DNA of 64,000 nt from a virus: positions 1-64,000 of IMG/VR virus record IMGVR_UViG_3300023301_000006. One strand, given 5' to 3'. Positions 11,233-39,699 of the stretch are shown here, one piece after another (positions within the stretch are counted from its first letter, which is position 1; every line of letters begins with the position of its first letter). The position numbers and the translations under genes are program-made. A model generated the notes under the pieces. The model was not told where the DNA came from and did not search any database. It was given only the letters and a program-made list of their open reading frames with translations.

Positions 11233-14200
11233 TTATCTTACAGGACAGTGACCACTTTCACATCCTGCTCCATCGTCTATCTCGAAGTCCGAACCATCTT
11301 CATAATCTGATAGTAACTCTTCGTCGAACTTTGGAAGTTCTTGAACCATATTCTTGTATTCGTCTTCAGTTATACTCTCGAAAGGAAGTAACTCATAAAA
11401 GCTATCATCTAATGATAAGAAAGATATTCCTACGAAACAATCCCAATTATCCCACAACCATTCCTCTACTAAGTCCCATTCATCTTTTCTAACATGGACA
11501 GTAATACTAGCATTATGGTCTACGAATTCTTCCATTAATAATTTGTACTCATCCAATTGTTCAATTGCACCTACGTCGTACTTAGTCCTACCCTTTGGAG
11601 CTTTAACAGGAAATTCAAATACTTTCGTAGAATGCTCTTCTCTAGTTTGTCCTACTTCTGGCTTCCATTCGAATCCGGAGTCTATCATAGACATCGCAAC
11701 AGGGTCTTTAGCTGATACTCTAACTCTTCTTATATAAAAAGGACTATGTGACCAATGAATACCCGAAGAAGCACTGTTAGGTAATATTGAAACTGTTCCT
11801 GCTGGTTGTGCTGTTGTTACTAATTCTGCTTTTGTTACATTATATTTCTTAGCTAATTCTTCATTCATGTTGTTTGCAACACTTCTCATGAATTTCAACA
11901 GCTTTTTCTTTTCATCTTGACTAATATTTCCTTTGTTTATAAAGTCTTGATATCCAGTCATTGAAACGCCAATTATTCTATCTTCTCTTGCAACATCATC
12001 CCACTCCAGTAAGTCCAACTCTTGTAGACTAATAATGAATGCTATATAAGTTGCCCATTCTACTGATTGCTCTAATTCATCATATAATATCCCTCCTGAT
12101 TCGTCTAAGAAAGATAACATGGATATAATGGTTAAATTACAATGTTGTTTCGATTTTAAAAGTATTTCCGCACCTTACCACACTTACTTTCATAAGCCAA
12201 CTTTAAGTTGTTGTAGTCTGGACTATACCATATTACATTTAAGTAATGAGATATTATAGTCTCTGAACATCCCCTATAAAATAAGGTTTTGATGCTGATT
12301 GTCCAATTCATACAATTTTTAACATTCGCGTTTATAGTTTCCTATTACGCTGTAGTTTGTATGACTCTAAGGAGTTTCCAGCAGTTTAATCTCTTTTAAA
12401 TCCACATGTTTGGTCTATGGATTAAGTCCTTCTGCGTCTGGTTTTCTTCTTTGAATCTCTTCTAGATTAGCTATTCCCACTTATATTAATCATAGACGCT
12501 ATTCATATGACCAGTCCTTAAAATGTAATAGGGACTGCTATATATTTCTATATAGGTTAGACTATATCATGACTCATTTGAGTCTCTTCCGCTTCGAATA
12601 CCAATAACTTGTATTCTACTCCTTTTCAGGATAGTCGTTGAACTTTAACAGTGTTGGAAGTTACATGTAACACTATTCTTAGCTGCTGATTGTCTTTGCC
12701 ATTACGCAGTAAGAGTTTCCAGCAATTCAAAAGATTTATAGAACCCAGTTTTTACTTTAGGCTCTCCAGAAACTTTCATAGTTTGAACATGCTCGTGTAA
12801 AGCCTCTCTTGCAGGTTTTTTCTTATACAGTACAGTGTTATTGCTCATTTGTCTATGTTTTATATCTGTGTCTATTTGCCATTTACCATTAACTTCTGTA
12901 TATAAGTTAGTCTTTGCATTTCTTGTTTCGTAATCGTCAGCAGACACTAAGGCAATTTCAGCTGCTCTCCTTACCATTTATATTCGAACATGTTCGTTAG
13001 GCATATCCCGTTCTCCTATGAACTGCTATATGTTGCCATATAGATTAGACTATATCTTCACTCTTATACATTTAAGCAAAAGAGGTTTCCTGTTTCCACT
13101 CACTTGAGTGTACGTCTTTCGACTAGTCGTTGCACCTTTTATAATTAATCTTCTTTTTATTTTTTTTACCAATCTTCCTTACAGAAGATTAATTATAACT
13201 TGGCTCAGAATTGTCTTAAGATACACTTAAGAGTTTCTCTGAATTTAAGAAATGTTTTTTTGTGTTGGAGGCATAAAATTTACCACCAACAACTATTGCT
13301 TCTGCTATTAAGCCATTAATATCTAACATATCAATAGGCTTTAGCTTAACTCTATGTCTGGTTATCTTACCACCGTTAGAATTTTTAATAATTCTGTCTA
13401 TTCCACTAAAAGACTCTTTTAAAGGTATATGACCACTTGCTGTGCCACCAAATGTCTTTAGGACCTCTCCCGCAGGACGAACATTATCATAGTTGAATAA
13501 GATAGTTTTTATTAAACCATCACTTGAACTAGCTTTGTAGTTGACTAAAAACTCTAAATAAATCTTTAATGATTCAGTCCAACCTCTTTTAGAATCTCCA
13601 ACTACAATCTCTAGTATAGAATTATTACTTAATGTCGTTGTTGTTAACTCTTGTCTAGCTAGTCTTGGAACAGGCTGATAGTCCTTGTGAATTATTTCTA
13701 TGTCTTGTCTTACTGGTTGTATCTTTTCAACGTCTTCTTTCAGTATTCTATATCCGACACCACTACCCAACATTAATAAGTACATTGCGTCAACTAGGTT
13801 AAATATATCGTCCATTGTGACATAACTACAATTAAAAGCACTTTGGAAATTTCTTTTAATGGATTCTGTCCCACCCGTATATCTGATTCTGCCAGAAGAA
13901 AATACTTTGAAATTGTACATCAAGTCAAATAATTCTTCTGCTTTCTCAGAGTCACCTTTGGGGTCTAACTCTATCATATAGTCCACAACTCTTGCGTTCA
14001 TTTCCAACCAAGTTTCTCGTCTATTTATGCCTTTAATAAATCTAGAGTATGTTCTATAGAAAGTAAATTTTGATAACTCTGAGTCAAATGGATTTGGGTC
14101 TCTAGCATAATCTCTTAAAAACTCTTTGTTCAAATATTTAAATTTCTTGTAAGGGTGCCACCTCTCCCTTATCTGTTTGTGCTTTTCTCTATATAATATA

Positions 14201-15619: not shown

Positions 15620-18600
15620 TTAACTATGTTTCTCACTTCTCATTTCTAATTTTCCATCGTCTGTTATTTTTTCAATTAAGTAAACTAAACTTTGCTTTGT
15701 CCTGGAATAATCTTTCCCCCTAAAAGTGGTTTCGCTCGACCTATATCCAGTAATCATAATTTTGTTGCCCCTACTAAAAAAACTACTATCTATAATAGAG
15801 CTATTCTTTTTGACTTGTCTATCGTAGTACGCAAAATCAGAACCTTTAAACTTTACAGTAACGACTCCACTCCTAGTTAATATTTGAGTCATATGTTTAT
15901 TCTTATTTCTGCTAAGGCAAGTTCCAATTATCGTTGATAAGTGAAATACTGGGTACTTGTCTTTCCAATAAAACTTCACAGGTTTTATTTTTAAGTCTTT
16001 AAATTTATCCACGAATGGATAATATTCATAGTCTATATAGTCTAATTCATTGTCTGTGGCATAATAGGATATAGAATCCATTTCCCATTTACCTATTGTT
16101 CCTTCAGTATAGTGGGACGCTTCTTCCACTATTATGATTTTATTGTACTCTTTTAAAAGTTCTTTTTCATTCTCTTTAATAAATTTTCTTAACTTATCTG
16201 CATCTTTCTCATAAGTAGACTCGAAAACTGATGACTCTACTAAATATTTGTCTTTCTTGTAAACAACTTTTAACTCTGGGTGTTCTACATTTAAAAATTC
16301 AATCATCATTTCTTGTAATGGAAAATATTTTTTGTCATCTACCTTTATTTCTTCGTTTGAACGTAGTATTTTTCTTAAGTACCACATTATTGAGCTATTC
16401 TTAACTTTTGTATTACTAAAAAATTTAGCATCAAATAGTCCAGCCATATTCCTTAAAGACAAGGAAGTTTTTACCTTTGCTTTTCCAGCAATATAATCCA
16501 TTAATAATTCTCTTCTGTCTTTTTCTTCAATGTTCCTGAAGGCATTTGACTTAATCAAGGATATATTTTTCCTCTTTGACGGTTTTATTCTTTTATAAAA
16601 GTCTCCATAGCTAGTGTATGGTCTACTCTCTACTATTTCAGTAACAAGGTCATCACCAACGTAAGACATTCCTTTTAGTCCGAATAATATAACTCCTCCA
16701 TCAAAGTCTGGGGTAAATACATATCCAGATTTATTGATGTCTGGAGGTGCTATTGTTATTCCAACTTGCTCCATATTACTAATTGCCACAGCTACTTTAC
16801 CATAGTTAGAAGATGTGTTCTTATCTCCATCTTGGTCTATTGCACCACTTTCAACTGTTAAACAAGCTGAATTCCAAGCTAAGTCATTATACTCATATGT
16901 TAAGTTTAAAATTTGCAAAGCTATCATAGAATAAGGTAAGGTATGATTCCGACTAAAACTATCATGTTGTTCCCACATTTTTGTGGGCATGGACTAACTC
17001 TTTAAAGTTTAATATCTCTCTAATAAGGTATTAAACTTTATCCACTGTTTGGAGAATAGGAATTTCACCTAAACTCTACTTCCCTTGCGGGAATAGTCTC
17101 TACACTCGCTTTCGCTAGCACGGGATTGTCATATCCATAAATGGACTTAGATTTCCCCGTTAGCACTAAATTAATAGTACACCCTATATTTATAGGTTAA
17201 GTGGAATGGGCAATTTTATTTACCCAAGTTGAGGAACTACACAATGATGCCATACGTAATTTATTATTTCCTCTCTTGCTCCAGTTCTTTCCTTCGCTTT
17301 ATCGAAGTAATCTTCTTTTAACTTATCTATTAATTTAGCTTTCTTCTTTGCTATGGCTTTTCTAGCCTTATGTGCCTCTACAACAGTAAAGCCAGATATG
17401 GATTCGTCCATTAGGATTTCCATAATGTCTTCTTGTGTAGCCGCAATGCCGTAACTTTTATCTAAGTGTTTCTTCATTGTCATTATCTCATCTTCGTTTA
17501 AGCCTTGTAGGTGCATTTCTTCATACCAAAGACTTATATCCTTTCTAAACTTAATAAACTTATCTAATGGTTGAATACTTCCTCCACTAGATGATAATCT
17601 CATTAATGAGTTTGCTGTTGCCATCTCCACCAATGAATGAGGTGCTACTTCTCTTATGGCTTTAGAACCCACCATTGTATCAAATTGGAATAGAGAAACA
17701 ATTTCACCTTTCGCAGCTTTGTCCCACATTTCTAAGTTGTCATACTCAAGGACAGCAGGAGATAAATACTTATCATAAGTCTCCCTTAGTGTTTCTTGTC
17801 TTTCCATCGCACCGTTGGTGATTAAATGATTCATAGTTATTCTAATTTTATCTAGAATCTTTACAGTTAAGAAGTCAAATTTGACTCCTCCCATATACAT
17901 CTTTATCCTATGTTTCCACAGGGACGGACTATTTCATGTTCTATTTTAAAATAGAACTCTTGCACTTCGACTGGGACAATATCCAGTCTACGCCTCTCGG
18001 CTAGTCTCTACATCTTTCTCTTGCTTCAATAATAGTTTTTATAAAGTTCTGAGGTTTTAAAAGCCCTATAAAGTTGGGAATGCCCCTTTAAATTTAAGTC
18101 TCTTAGGACTAAAGTTACTGAGTCATATACCTCAACTAGATTCCAATTGATATCATATTTGTAAACTTTTTTAGAACTTGTTGCACCGACATCAACTTTA
18201 CCAATATTAGAACCAACAACTCCTTTTTTAGATTCACTTATTTTTTATTGTTATTTACACTATTATTAAAACTTAAGACTTGACACGAGATTGCCATATT
18301 GCCGAAGCAACTTAGGTTTCCTCGTTAGCTTAACCCCTTTAATAAGGATTAAACACCCTTTTTGTCGTAAGGTTCACAAAATTTACTATAACTCTCACAA
18401 GTTATAGGGACTATATAATTAATCCGAATCTGACATGTCAAACTGAGTTGTAGGAACATCACTCGGAGACATCATCAAAGCATTCCTTTTATAATAAGGT
18501 TCATTATATATATAGATACCAGAGGCATGTATGCTTCTCTTGTCTATAATTCCCTCGAATGCTAATATCGTCTCCTGTAATTTTTTATCTTCATATTCTT

Positions 18601-20313: not shown

Positions 20314-22056
20314 TTAAAAAACGAAAGAACTACTTGCTTTTATCTCACACTCATCTACGATAATTTGAGGGACAACCTTACCATTTCACTCATTCGTGTT
20401 CGGCTTACCTATTAAACTAATTTCAAGGGAGTTACCATTTGGTATATTTGCAATTATTTCCTCTGCTCTAAACATTATATACTCAACACCATTAAAAATA
20501 ATCTTTATAATATTAGATTTCTTTCCGATTAGTTGTAGCTCTGATGCGTCTATTTTAATATTAGATACCATAATCTTAGGCTCTCTCAATCTAGTTCCCC
20601 AAAGGTGTTTCATATCATTTAATTTAAAGATGTACTCGCTACTTACTTCAGTGGAGTCCATTAAGAAGTCTATGCTAAATACTTTTTCAAAATCATAGTC
20701 TTTTAATAGGTTGTTACTTAGCTCTATTAATGGTTTTATATTTTCTGGTTTTATACAAGTTCCGAAAGCTGCTTGATGACCTTCTGCGTATTCTACTAAA
20801 CCAGTATTGTTTAAGTACTTCTTAAATTCATTTAGTTTTGTTCCAGAGGGGCATCTACCACTACCATAAAATAAACCGTCTTCTTCATTCTTTAAAAGTA
20901 TTAAAGTTGGTCTATTATACTTGTCTTGTATTTTATTGGCAACTAGTCCAGTCATAGACCGCTCAATTATATTAGTCGCATTTAAGATTATAACTTTATT
21001 TCCTAATTGGTCTTTCTCAACTAACTGTGTTAATTTTTTCATACCATTAGTTTCTGCCTTCTTTTGTCTTATCTTAATATTACCTGCCATTCTAGCCATT
21101 TCCTTTTCAATGAATACTAGTTGTCCTTTGTTGTTTCTACCAGAACCTATTACCTTACTACCGTCTAGTATAAATGCTTTAAACATCATAATCTTCTCTT
21201 GCATATTTCCAAGTCTAATGACAGCATTTATCAATGGAGCTATATAGAACATTATGTCTATTGGATAAACATTGTCACCCAAAGAGTAGCTCTTTTTCTT
21301 TATTAATGCCTTGATGAATAAGTTTCCTTCAATATCATCATTCATTAATTTTACGCCTCTTCTGACTATTACAATATTATCTCTCAACCTCATGTCCATA
21401 TTATCTGAGGCTATCCCTAATGCTGCTAAATCTACTAACTGTTCTGAGAAATTAATACTATTTACATCATCTAGTGCTTGACAAAATTTAAACGCAACTC
21501 CAGCTCCACTTAAGAATTTATTGTTGTAGTCTGGAGATAATTGGTTGTTAACCACCATTGCATATTCAGATTCTTTACTTGCTTCATGGTGGTCTAGTAC
21601 AATAATACTTGTACCAGCGTCTGAGAGTTCTTTATGCTTTTTATATTGACTACTACCCGCATCTGGAATTATTACTAAGTCATATTCTTTCATCTTTTCA
21701 AGCTCTTCTCCATCTGGTAGTCCTACTTCTTTGTTTTCGTGTATAAAAAAGTCCATATCAGTAAGATTATAAACCTTATATAAATACTTTCATATGATAG
21801 ATGCTGAGGTATAACCATCAACGTCACTATCTACTACTATCATTACTTTTTTGTCACCTTGGCTAAGTTGTTCATCTAAGAACACAGATGTCTCTTTAAG
21901 ATTCTTTAACCTATACTTATCTTCTTCGTAATCTACGCTTGTGTCTTCTCTACTTAAAAATATGTTAATATCATCTGGACTTACTCCTCTTTTTAAAAGT
22001 AAATCCTCTTGAATAGAACTAGAAAGTCCTACTAAATTGTCTAATGAAAATTGCAT
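20314..22056 (-). CDS. recJ: RecJ-like single-strand DNA exonuclease (DHH family)
   Basis: 580 residues through two TGA codons (21790 and 20386). DHH motifs: V-D-S-D-V-D-G-Y-T-S-A (I), I-I-P-D-A-G-S (II), L-D-H-H-E-A (III) and D-L-A-A-L-G-I-A-S-D-N (IV). The DHHA1-type region has G-S-G-R-C. The end reads N-E-W-N-G-K-V-V-P-Q-I-I-V, the OB-domain tail in which Trp comes from TGA; without reassignment the protein would lose this end and its first 88 residues. It is a Mn2+-dependent 5'-3' exonuclease in recombination and repair, placed between the primase and the polymerase. Confidence 0.82.
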
Positions 22057-22080: not shown

Positions 22081-22290
22081 TTAACATTGGAAAAATTCCA
22101 ATGGATATATTCAGTCAATACTTTCTTCTGGAATGTTGAATTCTAACCCTTGTGCTTCGTAAACATTTTGCCCAGTAAATAGGTAGTCTTCCGCAACACC
22201 TACTCACACAAAATGGAAGCTTTTACCATCCATTTCTACCATAGATTTAGATAGCCCTTTAGTGATTTTTGGTCTATAAATTCCCTTCAT
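22081..22290 (-). CDS. Small hypothetical protein between primase and RecJ
   Basis: 69 residues, beginning MKGIYRPKITKGLSK, hidden from standard-code annotation by two TGA codons (22204, 22111) that give F-V-W-V-G and I-D-W-I-Y-P. TAA stop. No family recognised. Short beta-rich proteins at this position in replication operons are often accessory factors; that is inference. Confidence 0.6.
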
Positions 22291-22301
22291 ATTATCAGCT
22301 C

Positions 22302-23411
22302 CTACATTCTAATTTTTTTATGATATATTTTTTCGAAGACTTCTTTGCCCTGGTCTATTGGAGATTGCTTTCTCCTTAATAATTCATGCTCATCAACCAT
22401 TATAAAGACAGTAAAGTAAGGCTTTAAAAACTCTGCTAGTTTAAGCATGTTCTCAAAACATTCAACTCCTTCATCTGAGTAAAAATCTGTGTAATCTTTG
22501 TCTAAAGCCAAAACAACTCTATCTACATCTAAATGTAATAGCAATTTCACTTGTTGACTACTTATCTTTTTTCCAGCCATGGCTAAAGTAAAGTTGTTAT
22601 TCGGATAAATCGTTTCTGCTTTTAGAACACTTTTTTCTGATTCAAAAATTACTACTTGTCTTAAATTACGTATTACTTTTTTATTCCTGTATATACCATA
22701 AAAGTTCATGGAGGTAGGATGTGAAAAAATCTTCTTTTGTATCGTCATAGGCATGTATTTATATCCATCATTGATTTCACTTTTTCTAAGTGCTCTACCT
22801 CTTATTCCTATCAGATTATTATTTATATCGTAGTGGGGAATAACTACCCTGTTATCTGTTATTGAATATTTTATATTAAACTTCTTCATTGAGTCTATAG
22901 ATATTCCCTCTTGGATTCATCCTTTATAGAAAGCATCTTTATAAAAATTTATTGTGTAACTGGGTATCTTTTTAATTACCTGTATCTCTTCTTTACCATC
23001 TTCCATTGCTCTTTTGTATTCATCTATAAAATCTCATGTAAACTGTGTGTCTCTTTCTCTCTCTGTTTCTGTTTCTATACCAAAACCTAAGTTTATAGTT
23101 GTATGGTTTACAACGTATTCTATAGATTCTTCTAAACTTATCTTGTATCCTCTATACCACATTGTATCCTGTACTAACCCATATATATCATACGCATCTT
23201 GACCTCCTGTATAACATTTAAAAATCCCAGTTTCGAGATAATAATATAATTTATAACTCATCTTATCGTCTGGGTGGTGGTGGCACACTGTTTGGAAGAC
23301 AAGGCTATCTTTCCTTCTTTGAGGATAACTACTACCTAAGGACATTAAAACATCAATGATGTCATCCTCAGTTAGCTTGTCTCTTATGTCTTCTTTCATT
23401 TCAAAGAACAT
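22302..23411 (-). CDS. dnaG: DnaG-like primase
   Basis: 369 residues with TGA at 23034 and 22917 read as Trp. The N-terminus has a zinc-site pattern (V-C-H-H-H ... F-K-C-Y-T-G-G), where ordinary DnaG has C-H-x-x-C ... C. The TOPRIM domain has V-I-F-E-S-E-K-S (the Glu) and V-L-A-L-D-K-D-Y (the Asp pair). It makes RNA primers for the phage replisome. It is shorter than host DnaG and has no helicase-interaction domain that I can recognise. The start lies 15 bases after the helicase stop, with GGGAGG between them. Confidence 0.8.
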
Positions 23412-23426
23412 TTAAGCACCTCCCAC

Positions 23427-26400
23427 TTAAAAGGTTTCGCTAGGGACATCCTCTGTACCCTGTTGTCTTTTTTTCTGTTCATTCTCAATAGTTATTACTG
23501 TTGACTTCATTGGTATTAATTCATATTTCGAATTAGTGACAAATAAATCAGTTATTCTACACGTTCCCAAATCTGCTATCGACCATAATTTTACGCCCTT
23601 GTACTTAGAACGTCTGTTCTTGTATACATGGAACACTATATTAGGTACTTCTAAGAAATTCTCATCTAAGATATGGGATATAGCTTTAATATCTTTTTCT
23701 GTTGGTTCTAAAGCAATTATTCCAACATCAATTTTCGTTTATACCGTCACTTTCGTGATATTTAATACGGACTAGACTATATCTGCACCTCCCTAGATGG
23801 GAGGGACTGGCTCTTCGTAATAAGGAATTACACCTTAAAACTACTCCCTTTATTGGCTGGGATAGTCGTTACACCTTTAACTAAACTTGGCACGGGATTG
23901 TCATAGGATTTCTCCCTTAGAGTTTCCCCGTTAGCACTAAATTAATAGCACACCTTACATTTGTAAGTTCACCAGTACCTAACTACGCCATTGCTGACAT
24001 AGACGACTCTAGTTTACTTTTTATTCGCATAGATTTATAATATTTTCTATGCTACTTACTTCTATTTTTTTTCAATTTCAACACACCTTTCTAAGATGCG
24101 AATAAAAAGTTATTCAAATCTGCCATTGATTTTGCCGTGTTACTCTTGTGTTTCCACAAGCACTGACTATCTCTTACTCTCCTACCAAGGAGAGAATTTC
24201 TGTTTCGGTTCTCAGTAGTTTAATTACTTAAAACTACGTTACTTATCAATAGTAACCCTACTTTCCATCTAACTGGAAATAGTCGATACAGCGACTTACT
24301 TAATACATTATTAAGTAATATGCCACGAGATTACCATAGCTCTCACCTTAGGCTTCCTCGTTAGCTTTAATTTGTTAAATTAAAACCCCACTTGATATGC
24401 GGATAAGAAATTTAGTGGCGTAAAAACACCACGTAATAAATTTTGTGTAGCTTGGTCTACTTTATCCCAGTCACCATTAACTTGCGTAGCAGTATATATA
24501 AAGACTCCTAACTCATTGGCTATCTTCTTTAATCTACTTACAAACATCAACAGAACATTATCTTCTCTTAGTCTGACTCCTCTACTGGCAGAAGCAATTT
24601 CGGCAAGTATCTTTAAAGTAGTGTGAACATAATCGAAAAATACATAATGTACATCATGCTTTAATTTATGTCTCGTTACCATATTGTCTACTTGTTGAAT
24701 ATTATGATTAGACAAGTGTTCTATCCAAATTGGAGCTCCCTTTATGATGTGTGCAGCTTCTATTACCCTTTCCTTTTCTCCTTCGTCATATTCTCCATCT
24801 AATATATGTGCCTCATTTACATTTGAGACAAAGGCAAGGAATAATGTTTGTATCTCTTGTATTTCTAGCTCTGTAGTAATAAATAGTGATGGCATACTTA
24901 TACCATTAGATACTCAATCATTTTTCTTTGAGTCCCAAACTTTATCTACTGCTAGGTTTATAGCATCTCCCGCACTGAATCTAGTATTGTGAGTTACAAT
25001 ATAATCATTCATTAGGAACAAGTGTTCATCGTTGTCAACTGTAAAACAAGTCATCTCTGTAGAGAAACCCATTTTTTCTATATTTACTATTGGATTATAA
25101 TCTTTATGCTCTTTTCTTTTTAACGTTAAAACATACTTATTCGCAATATTTAATTTTCTAGAAAACCTAAATACTTTTAGCTTATCTTCGTGTGGCATTT
25201 GTATATTAATTTTATAACAAACTCCTGTAGAGTATTTATCTCTTATGTCCTCTATGATTGTTGGTATATAACCAAGACTTCTAGCTAAACTCACAACGTC
25301 ATCTTTAAGTTTTACACTAATAGTGTGATAAGCAACTCTTCCTTTTTTATCTATTGAGCCATCTGTATCAAGAAGCCCCTGTAGTAGGCACATTCTTTGG
25401 TCTATAGACCCCAATAAATAGTCGTCAGGAATAAATTTATCTTCACTTTTGGCATTCCATAAGTCTTTGTAACCTATTGATTCTTCAACAGAAATTCTGT
25501 TGTTAGTGTTTTTTTCTTTCCTAAAGAACCAAGAATAGTTTTCACTTTTTTCTTTCTCATAGTGCCACCCCTCTAATTTGGACATTGTAGATATTATTTC
25601 TTCATCGGCAGCAGAGAACGTTAAATCTCTTCTTCCACTTACATACCTGAAACTTCCATCTCCCAATAGTGCTCCAAAAGTGTAGGGTTTAAGTCCATAT
25701 TCTTTTTCATTATACTCAACTGCACCATTTATCGGAACTTTAAAAGTATACCCACTTGTTCCTTTAAATCCACCAAGAGATTTAGCTTCTTCGAGTATCT
25801 GCTTAGTAGTTTTTGTCTTATGGGCACATCTTCTATCTGTAAAATATTCCCATAAGTGTTCGTCACATGTTTCGGCAACTCTACCATCAGCGAAAGTAAC
25901 TTTGTTTATTTCTTTTTCACTCTCTTGCGGATGGACGCCCACTACTTTTGTTGGCTTTCCATTTCTTCCAAAAATGTAAGAACCAATTTTTACCTCATCA
26001 ACCCTTTTAAATCCTTCTGGAGTTGGTATCTTAGTATAGTTTGGGATAGCCTTCCCCACACCAGTAGGAGCACTTCTCATATAGAGTTTTTTAAGTCTTG
26101 CACCTCTTACGATACCGTTTATATAACTGCCATTTAAAGGTAGTCCAATTGCAGGTTTTTCTAATAAGTCATCTATTAAACCAACAATATTTTGACCAGC
26201 TCTTTGTCCATAACTATCTGCACTCATTTCAAAGCTTTGTCTAACCTCTACTATCTTCATGTCTACTAGATTAATTATTTCATTTATAGACATCTTGTCT
26301 AAACCATTTTGCATTTTTTCTTTCTTGTCTGAATTAAGTTCGTCTGGGTCATATATAAATCTTATGTCTACCCCAGACTTCAAATAAGCCCTCAATAAAG

Positions 26401-26755
26401 AGAACTTTTTTACACGATTATAGTAATACACAAAATTGTCTCCATCAGCACTATTCTTTGCAAATTCAAGAGCTTCTAGTCCTCTATTACTCCGAAATAT
26501 TTCATACTGCTCTGGATACTTATTTAAATAACTGTCTATCGCAATAGAGTCCAACCTATCCACTCCAGAATTAACTAAATTATTTATCGCAGAGAAAACA
26601 ATTCTATGATGTCTTGCTACAAAATCTGACACCTCTAATTTAAATCTATCATGTTTTAATAATGTTGTTGGGTTGTTCAAAAGAGCACCAAATAACATTA
26701 ATACTGCTTTGTTGTCGTACAATTCTTCTATATTTATATCTTTAAAACTACTCAA
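23427..26755 (-). CDS. dnaB: DnaB-like replicative helicase with an intein and two introns
   Basis: Exons 26755-24428, 24136-24119 and 23735-23427 make 884 codons. Residues 236-590 are an intein in the P-loop, so the mature helicase is 529 residues. The N-terminal DnaB domain is followed by S-A-P-T-G-V-G-K/T-R-F-S-A-G (P-loop after intein removal), then the RecA-fold core. Junctions read L-L-R-G/A-K-S-M-A-D/K-I-D-V-G-I, the usual DnaB motif-4 region. The end has V-Y-K-N-R-R. A TGA at 24914 gives N-D-W-V-S-N. It unwinds the fork and pairs with the primase encoded just downstream. Confidence 0.85.
23736..24118 (-). ncRNA. Group I intron 2 of the helicase gene (383 nt)
   Basis: Contains AACGGGGAAA ... 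CAATCCCGTGCC and P7 strand GATATAGTCT; the last base is G. A long hairpin (CTTTTTATTCGCAT with ATGCGAATAAAAAG) lies near the 5' end. The P1 pairing is short (AGAT with a distant GTCT), so the 5' boundary rests mainly on the protein junction D/K-I-D-V-G. Confidence 0.75.
24119..24136 (-). other. 18-nt microexon of the helicase gene
   Basis: Six codons, Ala-Lys-Ser-Met-Ala-Asp, lying between two group I introns. They complete the helicase motif R-G-A-K-S-M-A-D-K-I-D-V-G. Both flanking introns have their own core elements. Confidence 0.8.
24137..24427 (-). ncRNA. Group I intron 1 of the helicase gene (291 nt)
   Basis: Exon end GTGGT pairs with guide GCCAC 8 bases into the intron, with U.G at the splice site; the intron ends in G. 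AACGAGGAAG ... CTCGTGGC core and P7 strand AGATAGTCA are present. No ORF. Confidence 0.8.
24986..26050 (-). mobile_element. Intein with LAGLIDADG endonuclease in the helicase P-loop
   Basis: 355 residues inserted between Lys and Thr of the P-loop. The N-terminal block is A-I-P-N-Y-T-K-I-P-T-P-E-G-F, with Ala instead of Cys or Ser at position 1. The C-terminal block ends I-V-T-H-N, followed by Thr as +1 residue. Two LAGLIDADG-type helices are seen (F-G-A-L-L-G-D-G-S and L-Q-G-L-L-D-T-D-G-S), so it may still home. Ala-1 inteins are known to splice by attack of the +1 residue. Confidence 0.85.
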
Positions 26756-33554: not shown

Positions 33555-33995
33555 ATGTCCTTGAGTAAAAGTCTCTTATATAAAGACATAACTAATCAAG
33601 TAAGGGGTAACTTTAAAGTATTGAAACTAAAAGGGATAGAACACGGAGAGTATTATATTCCAATCCACAAAGGAGCGGTAAAAACAGGAATGAAAATTCC
33701 TCGTGAGAACTTAAAAAGAGCAAGTCTTATTTATCAAGTAGGAGATGTAGTTAGAATAAAAACTAAAGAGCAGTTTGCAAGGGATTTCAAAATAAACTAC
33801 TCAGAACAAGAAAGAGAATTTTATGTTAGAACCTCAAATACATTTTCAGTTAGTATGAATGTTTACTGTGGTAGAGAATTTGTCATTGTTGGATACACGC
33901 GTGAGAGGGGGTATATGCTAAAAGACATCCCTTTCTTTAGTTTTGACTCAGATATGTTTGTAGCAAATAGGTGTTTTCTGTATAAAGAAATATAA
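33555..33995 (+). CDS. Family A small protein (copy near the tRNA side)
   Basis: 146 residues. Shares with the array at 52691-58237 the core V-G-D-V-V-R-I-K-T-K-E-Q-F, a M-N-x-x-C-G-R-E-F segment, F-D-S-D-M and the ending F-L-Y-K-E-I. The SH3-like spacing suggests a small beta-barrel; function unknown. It is alone here, 19 kb from its relatives and on the opposite strand. Confidence 0.65.
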   Translation: MSLSKSLLYKDITNQVRGNFKVLKLKGIEHGEYYIPIHKGAVKTGMKIPRENLKRASLIYQVGDVVRIKTKEQFARDFKINYSEQEREFYVRTSNTFSVSMNVYCGREFVIVGYTRERGYMLKDIPFFSFDSDMFVANRCFLYKEI

Positions 33996-34003
33996 AATTG
34001 TTC

Positions 34004-34032
34004 TTGATAATTTATTAATATTGTTATATAAT
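34004..34032 (+). promoter_or_regulatory. Promoter
   Basis: TTGATA, 17 bases, TATAAT, followed by the shared ATAAGTATAGA leader. Confidence 0.7.
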
Positions 34033-34100
34033 ATAAGTATAGAAAGAAAAAAATAAAAAAAGAAAGGAGTAACTATACTTAAAATAACTAGAAAAACTTA

Positions 34101-34129
34101 TTGACATCTTGTTTATATTGTTATATAAT
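34101..34129 (+). promoter_or_regulatory. Promoter of the genes at 34210-35014
   Basis: TTGACA, 17 bases, TATAAT, same leader. It follows the previous promoter by about 100 bases, with a ribosome-site-like AAAGGAG but no convincing gene between them. Confidence 0.75.
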
Positions 34130-34209
34130 ATAAGTATAGTAAAAAAAAAGAATTATTTTAAGTAACTAGTAGTGTTGACGAGAACATCATAAAAATAGTA
34201 GGAGGATTT

Positions 34210-35088: not shown

Positions 35089-35343
35089 ATTAAATATTTA
35101 AATCATCTACTTGGAAAGAATGTAAGTATTGTTCACGATGATAAAGCGGACCTATTCAAACATAACCTGTATGGTGTGGTAAGAACCATTGGAGGAAACG
35201 ATAAGAATTTGGTATTGCAACTTACCAGCGGAAAAGTTATAAACTTTTCTGAAAGTGGAGAAATAGTTAAAGTTGAATACTCCAATGCAATGATTAGAGT
35301 TACTTATGCTAATGGAGTAAAAAAATTCTTGGATTTCTTTTAA
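35089..35343 (+). CDS. Small beta-rich protein with an ATT start
   Basis: 84 residues: a K-Y-L-N-H-L-L-G-K-N-V start, then V-R-T-I-G-G-N-D-K-N-L-V-L-Q-L and V-E-Y-S-N-A-M-I-R-V-T-Y. AAAGGAG is followed after six bases by ATT; there is no ATG, GTG or TTG near it in frame. The coding pattern is clear, so I take ATT as the start. TAA stop. No family recognised. Confidence 0.6.
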   Translation: MKYLNHLLGKNVSIVHDDKADLFKHNLYGVVRTIGGNDKNLVLQLTSGKVINFSESGEIVKVEYSNAMIRVTYANGVKKFLDFF

Positions 35344-35350
35344 AATGTTA

Positions 35351-35621
35351 TTGACAAATTACTATAATTTTGATATAATACAAGTATAGTAAAAAAATAA
35401 AACATATTAAATAATAATACGAAAAAAAGTTATTGACGAATTACTTATAATATGATATAATATAAGTATAGTAAAAAAATAAAACATATTAAATAACAAT
35501 ATGAAAAAAAAGTTATTGACAAATTACTTATAATATGATATAATATAAGTATAGTAAAAAAATAATATGAAGAAAAAAATGAGAAGAAGTTGTTGACAAA
35601 TTGAGTAAAATATTATATAAT
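35351..35621 (+). promoter_or_regulatory. Four tandem promoters
   Basis: TTGACA/TTGACG/TTGACA/TTGACA at 35351, 35433, 35516 and 35593, each with exactly 17 bases to TATAAT and an extended -10. The first three share long flanking sequence (ATAAGTATAGTAAAAAAATA and ACATATTAAATAA), so they are recent duplications. All read toward the gene at 35670. Confidence 0.8.
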
Positions 35622-35669
35622 ATTTATATAGTATAAAAAAAATAATATTAAAAAAGGAGTTGGACATTT

Positions 35670-36156: not shown

Positions 36157-36738
36157 GGTCTTTTAAAATTTAGTAATAACCACAACTAACCCAGTGAATA
36201 AAAAGTTTAACTAGCTTTTCTGGGACATATAGAAGATAGAGAGGTACGTTCTAAGGATATTTTGAATGTATAATCTTTTGCAGATAAGTAATTAAAAGCG
36301 AAAAGGAAGAAACTTCCAATTATAATATGTGTTGCAAATCTATTATTGTACTCAAAAGTACAAACCTAGTCGTTGTAATAATCCGTCTTCTAACCGAAGA
36401 TAACCTAAAATCTAGAGCCTATGGACGGCTTGTAGGGACTTAGGAATCCAACGAATACAATCAGTCTTGAACAGAGGAAACTCTGGTATAAGATTAGAAT
36501 TTGGTGCAAGTAGCCCTATGACTAAACAAAATTGGAATAACTTAAAATATAAAGTTATCAAGATGAATAGCGGGTGAAAGTTGCAAGTACACAATCTTGC
36601 TTAGGATTTTATTGGGGTAGAAAGTATGGGGGTAGCTCCTCTGTGCTCATCCTACTCTGCCTAGTGACTGAATATGATATGGTAATAGACTTGTAGAGTG
36701 AAGATTCAGTTGTGATTATTACTAAGTTTTAAAAGACT
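36157..36738 (+). ncRNA. Large structured RNA, ROOL-like
   Basis: About 580 nt without a usable reading frame, transcribed from a consensus promoter. Its two ends form a 20-bp stem (36158-36177 with 36718-36737) whose only deviation is one G.U pair. Inside are further hairpins and a GAGGAAACTC segment. Size, a long closing stem, a phage genome and a position directly before a tRNA array all match ROOL RNAs, described from Bacillota and phages and reported to assemble into large multimers. GOLLD is the alternative but is usually longer. The assignment is by architecture, not by alignment. Confidence 0.6.
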
Positions 36739-36745
36739 TGTTAAT

Positions 36746-36811
36746 GGGGGTGTAAAGAGGTCGACAGGTGCTTTAGTATACTGGACATGAGTTTAATTCT
36801 CATCACCTCCA
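36746..36811 (+). tRNA. tRNA-like element, anticodon unclear
   Basis: Acceptor GGGGGTG/CACCTCC, a good T arm (ATGAG TTTAATT CTCAT), discriminator A and encoded CCA. The D and anticodon arms are shortened, and I cannot place a standard 7-base anticodon loop. It follows the large RNA by 8 bases. It may be a degenerate tRNA. Confidence 0.4.
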
Positions 36812-37454: not shown

Positions 37455-37457
37455 CCA

Positions 37458-37728
37458 TAAGTCCCACTATGAGGGCATAAAGGCTTTGATGGAAACCCCA
37501 TCTGAAAGAGCGTATGGAAGCTCTAGTGTCTAAATCACATTAGTTTATAGATACGACATTTAAAAACAAATTTTTAAGAAATTGAATTGTGATAGCCTAT
37601 TAAGACTAAGGGCTTAAAATACAGAGTCTCACCATTGGCGGCAACCGAAAGTCGTGGGCTTAATTGCCCTTTCAAGTTATTAGGAACCCATTGGGGCTAA
37701 AGGTTTAAAATAGATAGTCCTATTATAA
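37458..37728 (+). other. Unresolved structured segment inside the tRNA array
   Basis: 271 bases with no ORF. Two D-arm-like repeats are visible (GACTaaGG...AGTC near 37603 and GGCTaaaGG...AGTC near 37695). There is also an anticodon-arm-like GGCGGCAACCG and a GGGCTTAATTGCCC hairpin. It could hold degenerate tRNAs or another structured RNA. I could not fold a complete tRNA. Confidence 0.35.
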
Positions 37729-37799
37729 CTAGGTGTGGGATAATGGTTGTCCGCTAGCTTTGGGAGCTAGTGACGGGGGTTCGATTCCTCCCACTTAGA
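37729..37799 (+). tRNA. tRNA-Pro (UGG)
   Basis: Acceptor CTAGGTG/CACTTAG, anticodon stem CTAGC/GCTAG with loop TTTGGGA. Unlike the others it has no encoded CCA. Confidence 0.82.
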
Positions 37800-38082: not shown

Positions 38083-38251
38083 GAATGAAGGAGTAGAGGT
38101 CGCACCTCGAGGTAGGATGAAAGCTATCCGTAAAGGGAAAGCGGATAAATATCTCTGATTGATAGTTAGAGAAAAGTTTTTTGTAGTCTTAATAATACCA
38201 CCAACGCATTGGCTCTAAACGTTGAAAAAAATATAGAGAGCCATTAAGTAT
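38083..38251 (+). other. Unresolved structured segment between tRNA-Gln and tRNA-His
   Basis: 169 bases with no ORF. It contains several short hairpins (GGTCGCACC region, GGATgaaagcTATCC, and GGCTCT...AGAGCC near 38210-38242). It may be a decayed tRNA cluster or a separate small RNA; no family recognised. Confidence 0.3.
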
Positions 38252-38323
38252 GGTGGTTATAGCTCAATGGTAGAGCACATGGTTGTGGTCCGTGCTACTT
38301 GGGTTCGATTCCCAATAATTACC
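38252..38323 (+). tRNA. tRNA-His (GUG)
   Basis: Has the extra G at position -1 facing C73, acceptor GTGGTTA/TAATTAC, loop TTGTGGT, encoded CCA. Confidence 0.9.
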
Positions 38324-39235: not shown

Positions 39236-39315
39236 GGGTGTGTAATCTTAAACTGAGCTGAGCTTAGGTGAGTCTCCAACACTCATGATAAAACGTTTGA
39301 TTCGTTACATGCCTG
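39236..39315 (+). tRNA. tRNA-Trp (CCA), atypical D arm
   Basis: Acceptor GGGTGTG/CATGCCT, anticodon stem TGAGT/ACTCA with loop CTCCAAC, G73 and encoded CCA. The D arm is longer than usual (17-base loop if ATCT pairs AGGT), and the T stem has a mismatch. Confidence 0.65.
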
Positions 39316-39323
39316 CCAATTAT

Positions 39324-39418
39324 GAGAGTGTATAGCAGTGAAGTACTGTGGCGGTCTTCAAAACCGTACGGCTGAGGTCCAAACTTGGTTTATGAGGGAG
39401 CGTTACCTTCCATTCTCG
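39324..39418 (+). tRNA. tRNA with UCA anticodon: candidate UGA decoder
   Basis: Acceptor GAGAGTG/CATTCTC (7 bp with one G.U), D stem GCAGT/ACTGT, anticodon stem GCGGT/ACCGT with loop CTTCAAA (anticodon UCA), G73 and encoded CCA. About 21 bases are extra between the anticodon arm and the acceptor: either a long variable arm or a duplicated T-arm-like hairpin (CTGAG GTCCAAA CTTGG). G73 is a tryptophanyl-tRNA synthetase determinant, and TGA encodes Trp in this element. The length is also tRNA-Sec-like, but no selenocysteine context is seen. Confidence 0.7.
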
Positions 39419-39424
39419 CCAACA

Positions 39425-39590
39425 ATAAATGTTTGCGGAGCATACCAAAACCGTTTTAATAGTGTGGGAAGTCCAGAGAGTGGACGCTTAAGACAATAAT
39501 GTGAGTTAAATAAAGGTGGGTAATCGTCTTTCCTTGTGAAGATTGAACCACTTTAACTCGATGCTAGGTTAAAATCCTAGCCCCACTACA
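39425..39590 (+). other. tRNA-like structured segment at the end of the array
   Basis: A perfect T-arm-like hairpin (GCTAGG TTAAAAT CCTAGC) is followed by CCCACT. A partial acceptor partner AGTGTGG and a D-arm-like GTCC AGAGAGT GGAC lie 100 bases upstream. A long hairpin (GAGTTAAA...TTTAACTC) lies between them. It could be a tRNA with an insertion or another small RNA. Confidence 0.35.
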
Positions 39591-39699
39591 TATACATATA
39601 AACATACACTCTTAATAAATTAAATCTAAATGAATTTGGAAACAGCTCTCTATTAGGAGAAGAGTTGTACAACATAAAAATTTACCAAGGAGGAAGATT

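What the first reader, a model, noticed from the sequence alone, without database searches (positions are those of the whole stretch)
39236..39418. Adjacent CCA and UCA tRNAs: a built-in UGA decoder of unusual shape
The last two tRNAs of the array are a tRNA-Trp(CCA) and a tRNA with anticodon UCA and G73. The UCA tRNA carries about 21 extra bases between the anticodon arm and the acceptor, and the CCA tRNA has an enlarged D arm. Known UGA suppressors of recoded phages are mostly ordinary tRNA-Trp(UCA). A long-variable-arm form raises the question of which synthetase charges it.
Basis: partly seen in the sequence, partly recalled or inferred. Interest (0 to 1): 0.8.

Follow-up and report, generated by a model that had tools for sequence, protein, structure and literature searches.

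The report
Phage tryptophan tRNA with two anticodons
This virus reads the stop codon UGA as tryptophan, and its likely adaptor is a strange transfer RNA with two anticodon arms, one matching UGA and one matching the normal tryptophan codon; many unrelated phages carry such a gene, labelled as a selenocysteine tRNA by the tRNA finder used here.

Summary
In detail: 39236-39318 encodes a tRNA-Trp(CCA) with an enlarged D arm and 39324-39421 a UCA tRNA with about 21 extra bases, both with encoded CCA ends. UGA means Trp in this phage: three UGA codons are TGG in a 93%-identical relative and none is anything else, and UGAs in DnaE and the helicase align to Trp in other phages. The 21 extra bases are not an ordinary variable arm. 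They form a second anticodon-like hairpin, CTGAG-GUCCAAA-CTTGG, with anticodon CCA. A scan that did not ask for this found it in 38 of 39 seven-bp-acceptor class II UCA tRNAs of other phages (11 of 12 clusters) and in 0 of 13 genuine tRNA-Sec. In all, 57 distinct sequences (27 clusters) show U-CCA nearly always in the loop, a covarying stem, G73, and mostly A1-U72. ARAGORN calls them tRNA-Sec. None of 50 records carries trpS. A prophage in Bacteroides neonati, whose genome has RF2, uses UGA=Trp in terminase and capsid genes. I read it as a TrpRS-charged UGA decoder; why the CCA arm is kept is inferred, not shown. The window copy is the most divergent member (no D-loop GG, no T-loop UUC). I found no description of a two-anticodon tRNA in the open papers searched.

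The parts
39324..39421 (+). two-anticodon tRNA (UCA + CCA), proposed UGA-reading tRNA-Trp; includes encoded CCA (39419-39421) and G73 (39418)
   Evidence: five-helix fold; family model best hit in window 47.3 bits; relaxed ARAGORN tRNA-SeC(tca)
39324..39330 (+). acceptor stem 5' strand GAGAGTG
   Evidence: pairs 7/7 with 39411-39417 CATTCTC
39331..39350 (+). D-arm region, no GG in the loop
   Evidence: sequence; 56 of 57 distinct family sequences have GG, this one does not
39351..39367 (+). anticodon arm 1 GCGGT-CTTCAAA-ACCGT, anticodon UCA at 39358-39360
   Evidence: same loop and U31-A39 as tRNA-Trp; phage tRNA-Trp genes match this arm by BLAST
39372..39388 (+). anticodon-like arm 2 CTGAG-GTCCAAA-CTTGG, CCA at 39379-39381
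   Evidence: conserved U-CCA loop with covarying stem in 26 of 27 clusters
39394..39410 (+). T-position arm GAGGG-AGCGTTA-CCTTC with non-canonical loop
   Evidence: fold; same loop in L011 only
39411..39418 (+). acceptor 3' strand CATTCTC and discriminator G73
   Evidence: sequence; G73 in 57/57 distinct family sequences
39236..39318 (+). tRNA-Trp(CCA) with enlarged D arm, anticodon at 39276-39278, encoded CCA
   Evidence: sequence; T arm, acceptor and CCA end resemble an unannotated tRNA-Trp of Vibrio phage D260
18674..18676 (-). in-frame UGA codon 520 of DnaE
   Evidence: aligned to Trp in SPBc2, GR1 and VRE9_4
24914..24916 (-). in-frame UGA codon 614 of the replicative helicase
   Evidence: aligned to Trp in SPBc2 YorI
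20386..20388 (-). in-frame UGA codon 557 of RecJ-like exonuclease
   Evidence: TGG in relative L008
22204..22206 (-). in-frame UGA codon 29 of ORF 22081-22290
   Evidence: TGG in relative L008
22917..22919 (-). in-frame UGA codon 165 of ORF 22302-23411
   Evidence: TGG in relative L008

Best explanation
The UCA gene is a divergent member of a so far unnamed family of phage tryptophan tRNAs that carry two anticodon arms. Arm 1 (UCA) lies at the normal spacing from the D arm and reads UGA as Trp on the ribosome. Arm 2 (CCA) lies at the normal anticodon-to-T-arm spacing, in the place of the variable region. The molecule looks like the 5' half of a tRNA-Trp(UCA) joined to the 3' half of a tRNA-Trp(CCA), each half keeping its own anticodon arm. 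Shown here: UGA=Trp in this phage and in relatives that carry the gene; the second arm, its U-CCA loop, its covarying stem and its Trp-type acceptor features; no phage-coded TrpRS in any of 50 records. Inferred: arm 1 is the arm used on the ribosome, the host's TrpRS charges the tRNA, and arm 2 is kept because it presents the CCA identity triplet to TrpRS (or guards against mischarging), so that charging and decoding use different arms.
For: UGA=Trp in the window: 3 TGA to TGG and none to anything else, 8 kept, against relatives; DnaE and helicase UGAs align to Trp in four comparisons. Across family loci 79 of 151 informative UGA sites align to Trp, next Tyr 18 and Phe 10; tRNA-Sec loci 3 of 19. 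Scan without any condition on the extra arm: UCCA there in 38/39 (11/12 clusters) of 7-bp class II UCA tRNAs, 0/13 of 8-bp tRNA-Sec. U33-C34-C35-A36 of arm 2 the same in 56 distinct sequences while positions 32, 38 and the stem vary (part of the set was selected for TCCAA, the 11 unbiased cluster representatives agree); all five arm-2 pairs show changes on both sides, 84.9% of cells paired, 0/500 shuffles reach the whole-structure covariation score. Each half of a family member, anticodon arm included, separately matches ordinary tRNA-Trp in isolated phages, never the whole. G73 57/57, A1-U72 44/57, the bacterial Trp discriminator and a minor Trp element (PMC12135181, PMC9976931). No trpS in 50 records. 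Bacteroides neonati prophage: RF2-bearing host, terminase and capsid UGAs are TGG in closest relatives, and this is the only tRNA in the locus. At least 12 loci also carry a separate tRNA-Trp(CCA), so arm 2 is not needed just to read UGG.
Against: No expression, charging or decoding data. The E. coli TrpRS structure paper says C34 is recognised mainly by size and that the enzyme need not tell C34 from U34 (PMC12135181), so a UCA tRNA might be charged without arm 2. The window copy lacks the D-loop GG and the T-loop UUC that other members have, so it may be impaired. Single-sequence folding supports arm 2 (mean pairing above 0.5) in only 40 of 56 and is weak for the window (0.47). The wider scan required TCCAA, so its counts are biased; the counts are not.
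Confidence: 0.62

Rival explanations
1. The window copy is a decayed or failed family member; UGA is read by the neighbouring tRNA-Trp(CCA) with its altered D arm (as in the Hirsh-type UGA suppressor, known to me from memory, where a D-arm change lets a CCA tRNA read UGA) or by a host tRNA.
For: The window copy lacks canonical elbow bases; UGA is a minor Trp codon here (about 36 UGA against 165 UGG in called genes); the CCA tRNA has an enlarged D arm.
Against: Acceptor 7/7 pairs, both loops, G73 and encoded CCA are intact; the odd 3' part is shared almost letter for letter with an unrelated phage (L011), so it is not random decay in one genome. In most other family loci the two-anticodon tRNA is the only tRNA found in the held stretch, and family phages use UGA=Trp.
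Confidence: 0.2
2. A true dual decoder: the same molecule reads UGA with arm 1 and UGG with arm 2, depending on which arm stacks on the D arm.
For: Arm 2 keeps anticodon-to-T-arm spacing of 3-5 nt, mode 4, and the intact triplet CCA with U33.
Against: Arm 2 often has G32 and mismatched closing pairs, unlike decoding anticodon loops, while arm 1 keeps U31-A39; several phages carry a separate tRNA-Trp(CCA); a UCA anticodon can in principle wobble to UGG.
Confidence: 0.1
3. It is a tRNA-Sec or a class II serine tRNA that inserts Sec or Ser at UGA.
For: UCA anticodon, long variable region and G73 are shared with tRNA-Sec and tRNA-Ser; ARAGORN calls such genes SeC.
Against: 7-bp acceptor, 24 bits against the tRNA-Sec cut-off of 47; UGA sites are Trp sites; true tRNA-Sec found in the same scan lack the UCCA arm.
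Confidence: 0.03
4. Arm 2 is a passive leftover of a fusion between tandem tRNA-Trp genes and has no role.
For: Halves match separate tRNA-Trp genes; in L011 a 3' half-like element follows the complete gene; one member, L053, lacks the CCA arm.
Against: U-CCA is kept across 26 clusters whose stems have changed at every pair.
Confidence: 0.08
5. Arm 2 is a decoy for host enzymes that cut or sense the tRNA-Trp anticodon loop.
For: Arm 2 mimics the tRNA-Trp(CCA) loop; phage tRNAs are known to counter tRNA-cutting defences (general knowledge; no test here).
Against: The arm occurs on UCA tRNAs in UGA-recoded phages; a decoy would not need that pairing. Whether other phage tRNAs carry such an arm was not searched.
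Confidence: 0.04

Closest known systems
Opal suppressor tRNA-Trp(UCA) of code 4 phages
   Same: UCA anticodon, Trp at UGA, phage encoded
   Different: one anticodon arm, class I shape; some such phages also encode TrpRS (as reported in PMC10746230), none found in the 50 records here
Bacterial tRNA-Sec (RF01852)
   Same: UCA, extra arm, G73
   Different: 8-bp acceptor; extra arm has no UCCA in 13 of 13 unbiased cases; needs SelA/SelB and SECIS; UGA here is a general Trp codon
tRNA-Trp(CCA)
   Same: arm 2, T arm and acceptor of family members match its 3' half; acceptor, D arm and arm 1 match its 5' half
   Different: a single anticodon arm
Allo-tRNAs and selC* tRNA-Cys (reviewed in PMC7609411)
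   Same: non-canonical cloverleaf tRNAs, some reading UGA
   Different: unusual acceptor/T stem lengths (for example 8/4, 9/3), not a second anticodon arm; Ser or Cys identity

Membership tests
two-anticodon phage tRNA-Trp (family described here) | second 7-nt loop N-UCCA-NN on a stem between arm 1 and T arm | tested here: met
   CTGAG-GUCCAAA-CTTGG at 39372-39388
two-anticodon phage tRNA-Trp (family described here) | 7-bp acceptor and G73 | tested here: met
   7/7 pairs, G at 39418
two-anticodon phage tRNA-Trp (family described here) | A1-U72 (18 of 27 clusters; common, not defining) | tested here: not met
   G1-C72 in the window; G-C in 2 and G-U in 7 of 27 clusters
two-anticodon phage tRNA-Trp (family described here) | arm 2 to T arm spacing 3-5 nt | tested here: met
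   5 nt, TTTAT
two-anticodon phage tRNA-Trp (family described here) | D-loop GG and T-loop UUC (typical; the T loop was part of the search pattern) | tested here: not met
   D loop without GG; T-position loop AGCGTTA
two-anticodon phage tRNA-Trp (family described here) | phage uses UGA as Trp | tested here: met
tRNA-Sec | 8-bp acceptor stem | tested here: not met
   7 bp; 24 of 47 bits needed
tRNA-Sec | UGA inserts Sec with SECIS, SelA, SelB | tested here: not met
   UGA sites are Trp sites; SelA/SelB themselves not searched
ordinary class I tRNA-Trp(UCA) suppressor | variable loop of 4-5 nt | tested here: not met
   26 nt with a hairpin
ordinary class I tRNA-Trp(UCA) suppressor | charged with Trp by TrpRS | not testable with these tools
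   needs an aminoacylation assay
tRNA-Ser (class II) | serine at its codon | tested here: not met
   UGA aligns to Trp, not Ser

The most novel reading that the evidence does not exclude
A natural two-headed tRNA in which one anticodon arm (CCA) is read by the synthetase and the other (UCA) by the ribosome, so phages can reassign UGA using an unmodified host TrpRS.
Probability: 0.42. Interest if true: 0.95.

Novelty: new variant of a known kind. Interest (0 to 1): 0.85.

Why it matters
If confirmed, tRNAs with two anticodon arms exist in nature and recur in UGA-recoded phages, hidden under the label tRNA-Sec given by ARAGORN. It would show how a virus changes the code without its own synthetase, give a direct way to separate synthetase recognition from decoding, and offer a natural scaffold for engineered codon reassignment. 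It also flags tRNA-Sec calls in phage genomes as possible markers of UGA=Trp recoding.

Tried and rejected
Sec and Ser identity: rejected by UGA=Trp and the 7-bp acceptor. Normal tRNA-Trp(UCA) elsewhere in the record: none seen; the only tRNA predicted in the last 8.9 kb is Asn(GTT), and the odd RNA at 36746-36811 shows no UCA anticodon loop. Pairing of arm-2 CCA with the D-loop GG: rejected on inspection, since the base before GG varies between members. Wider occurrence of the window/L011 3' element: none by pattern in IMG/VR or 84,980 species genomes, nor in other loci. Close relatives of the window covering the tRNA array: none (L005 stops at 36752). Full-length family members in 50,697 phage records: none by BLAST with two queries. 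Paper searches for two-anticodon tRNAs: nothing relevant; the main code 4 phage paper is not held. A first frame-blind test of UGA meaning was confounded by shadow frames and replaced. A Pfam call on whole-locus translations failed for stop codons and was dropped.

Full report
What is there. The window is 64 kb of a 72,423-b virus record, 33% GC. After a ROOL RNA (36166-36726) comes an array of about 20 tRNAs. Its last two members are the ones reported: a tRNA-Trp(CCA) at 39236-39318 with 26 nt between acceptor and anticodon arm, and a UCA RNA at 39324-39421, both with encoded CCA ends and 5-nt spacers. Default tRNA finders miss both; relaxed ARAGORN calls the second tRNA-SeC. Its minimum-energy fold is a clean five-helix cloverleaf.

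UGA is tryptophan here. The called genes end in TAA or TAG and about 25 UGAs lie inside them, a few close to the 3' end. In codon alignments with 93%-identical relatives, 8 UGAs are kept, 3 are TGG and none is anything else. UGA 520 of DnaE aligns to Trp in SPBc2, GR1 and VRE9_4, and UGA 614 of the helicase to Trp in SPBc2.

What the extra bases are. A second phage, L011, holds a class II UCA tRNA with the same arm 1 and, right after it, a near copy of the window's 3' part. A scan of IMG/VR for class II UCA tRNAs with a tRNA-Trp-like anticodon arm, without any condition on the extra arm, gave 69 loci. Those that parse fall into two sets. Thirteen have the 8-bp acceptor of tRNA-Sec, and none has UCCA in the extra arm. 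Thirty-nine have a 7-bp acceptor, and 38 of these (11 of 12 clusters at 80% identity) carry UCCA there, normally in a 7-nt loop closed by a stem. A wider scan, which did require TCCAA, raised the family to 70 genes, 57 distinct, 27 clusters.

The second arm is under selection as an anticodon-like arm. U33, C34, C35 and A36 of arm 2 are the same in 56 distinct sequences, while positions 32, 38 and 31-39 vary; the 11 cluster representatives from the unbiased scan agree. Arm 1 keeps U31-A39 in nearly all, a pair typical of tRNA-Trp, although part of the search fixed it. All five stem pairs of arm 2 show changes on both sides, and the whole structure exceeds every shuffle and every slid control. 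Arm 2 lies 3-5 nt (mode 4) before the T arm, like an anticodon arm in a class I tRNA. BLAST of one member hits ordinary phage tRNA-Trp separately with its 5' half (up to position 52) and its 3' half (from 49), anticodon arm included in the 3' matches and in the longer 5' matches, and never as a whole. So the gene reads as 5' half of tRNA-Trp(UCA) plus 3' half of tRNA-Trp(CCA).

Who carries it and what UGA means there. In family loci 79 of 151 informative UGA sites align to Trp, followed by Tyr and Phe; in tRNA-Sec loci 3 of 19 do. In many loci it is the only tRNA; at least 12 also carry a tRNA-Trp(CCA). None of 50 records, several above 100 kb, encodes TrpRS, although many records are fragments and literature reports TrpRS in some code 4 phages (PMC10746230). 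Only four of 84,980 species genomes hold a member by the stricter pattern. One is a prophage of Bacteroides neonati, which has RF2: its terminase and capsid UGAs are TGG in the closest relatives, and head and packaging genes are among those with UGA.

Mechanism. The steps shown are UGA=Trp, the presence of arm 2 and its conservation. Charging by host TrpRS is inferred from the coding meaning, G73, the frequent A1-U72 and the absence of trpS. The role of arm 2 is the least certain step. I favour presentation of CCA to TrpRS, since bacterial TrpRS reads the anticodon triplet (PMC12135181). Against this, the same paper argues that C34 is checked mainly by size, so U34 may be tolerated; arm 2 might then serve fidelity, dual reading or something else.

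The window copy. It is the top hit in the window of a family model built without it (47.3 bits), but it is the most divergent member: G1-C72, no D-loop GG, and T-position loop AGCGTTA instead of UUCRANN. The same loop and stem occur in L011's extra 3' element, so this part is shared between unrelated phages rather than privately decayed. Whether it works is open.

Known or new. I found no description of a two-anticodon tRNA in the open-access library, but subscription papers and preprints were not searchable. I class it as a new variant of a known kind, the suppressor tRNA, with an architecture I could not match to any known tRNA.

Noticed in passing
L011:6010-6067 (minus strand): A 3' half-like element (anticodon-like arm with CCA, arm with loop AGCGTTA, acceptor strand, CCA) directly after a complete two-anticodon tRNA, with no 5' half; nearly identical to the 3' part of the window gene in an unrelated phage.
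   Followed up: partly
36166-36726: ROOL RNA directly upstream of the tRNA array; in L124 a ROOL RNA (275-798) follows directly after its two-anticodon tRNA (169-263).
   Followed up: no
37457-37729, 38083-38253, 39440-39600: Spacers in the tRNA array that fold well and match no Rfam family; 39440-39600 ends in a T-arm and acceptor-like sequence.
   Followed up: partly
36746-36811: Weak tRNA match (26.5 bits) at the start of the array with a poorly paired anticodon arm.
   Followed up: partly
12538-12809 and 13026-13291 (minus strand): Two group I introns in the ribonucleotide reductase gene region.
   Followed up: no
24380-26755 (minus strand): Replicative helicase appears to contain an intein-like insertion in its middle, judged by eye from the sequence and the split BLAST match.
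   Followed up: no
L053:2905-3002: Only member of the unbiased 7-bp class II UCA set whose extra arm lacks UCCA.
   Followed up: no
L027, L054, L059, L064, L067: Loci with a family tRNA but no UGA inside the called genes of the held stretch; UGA may be avoided or confined elsewhere.
   Followed up: no
17058-17198, 23823-23969, 33994-34166, 35342-35655, 67921-68149: Dispersed repeats, 72-84% alike, scattered through the phage genome.
   Followed up: no
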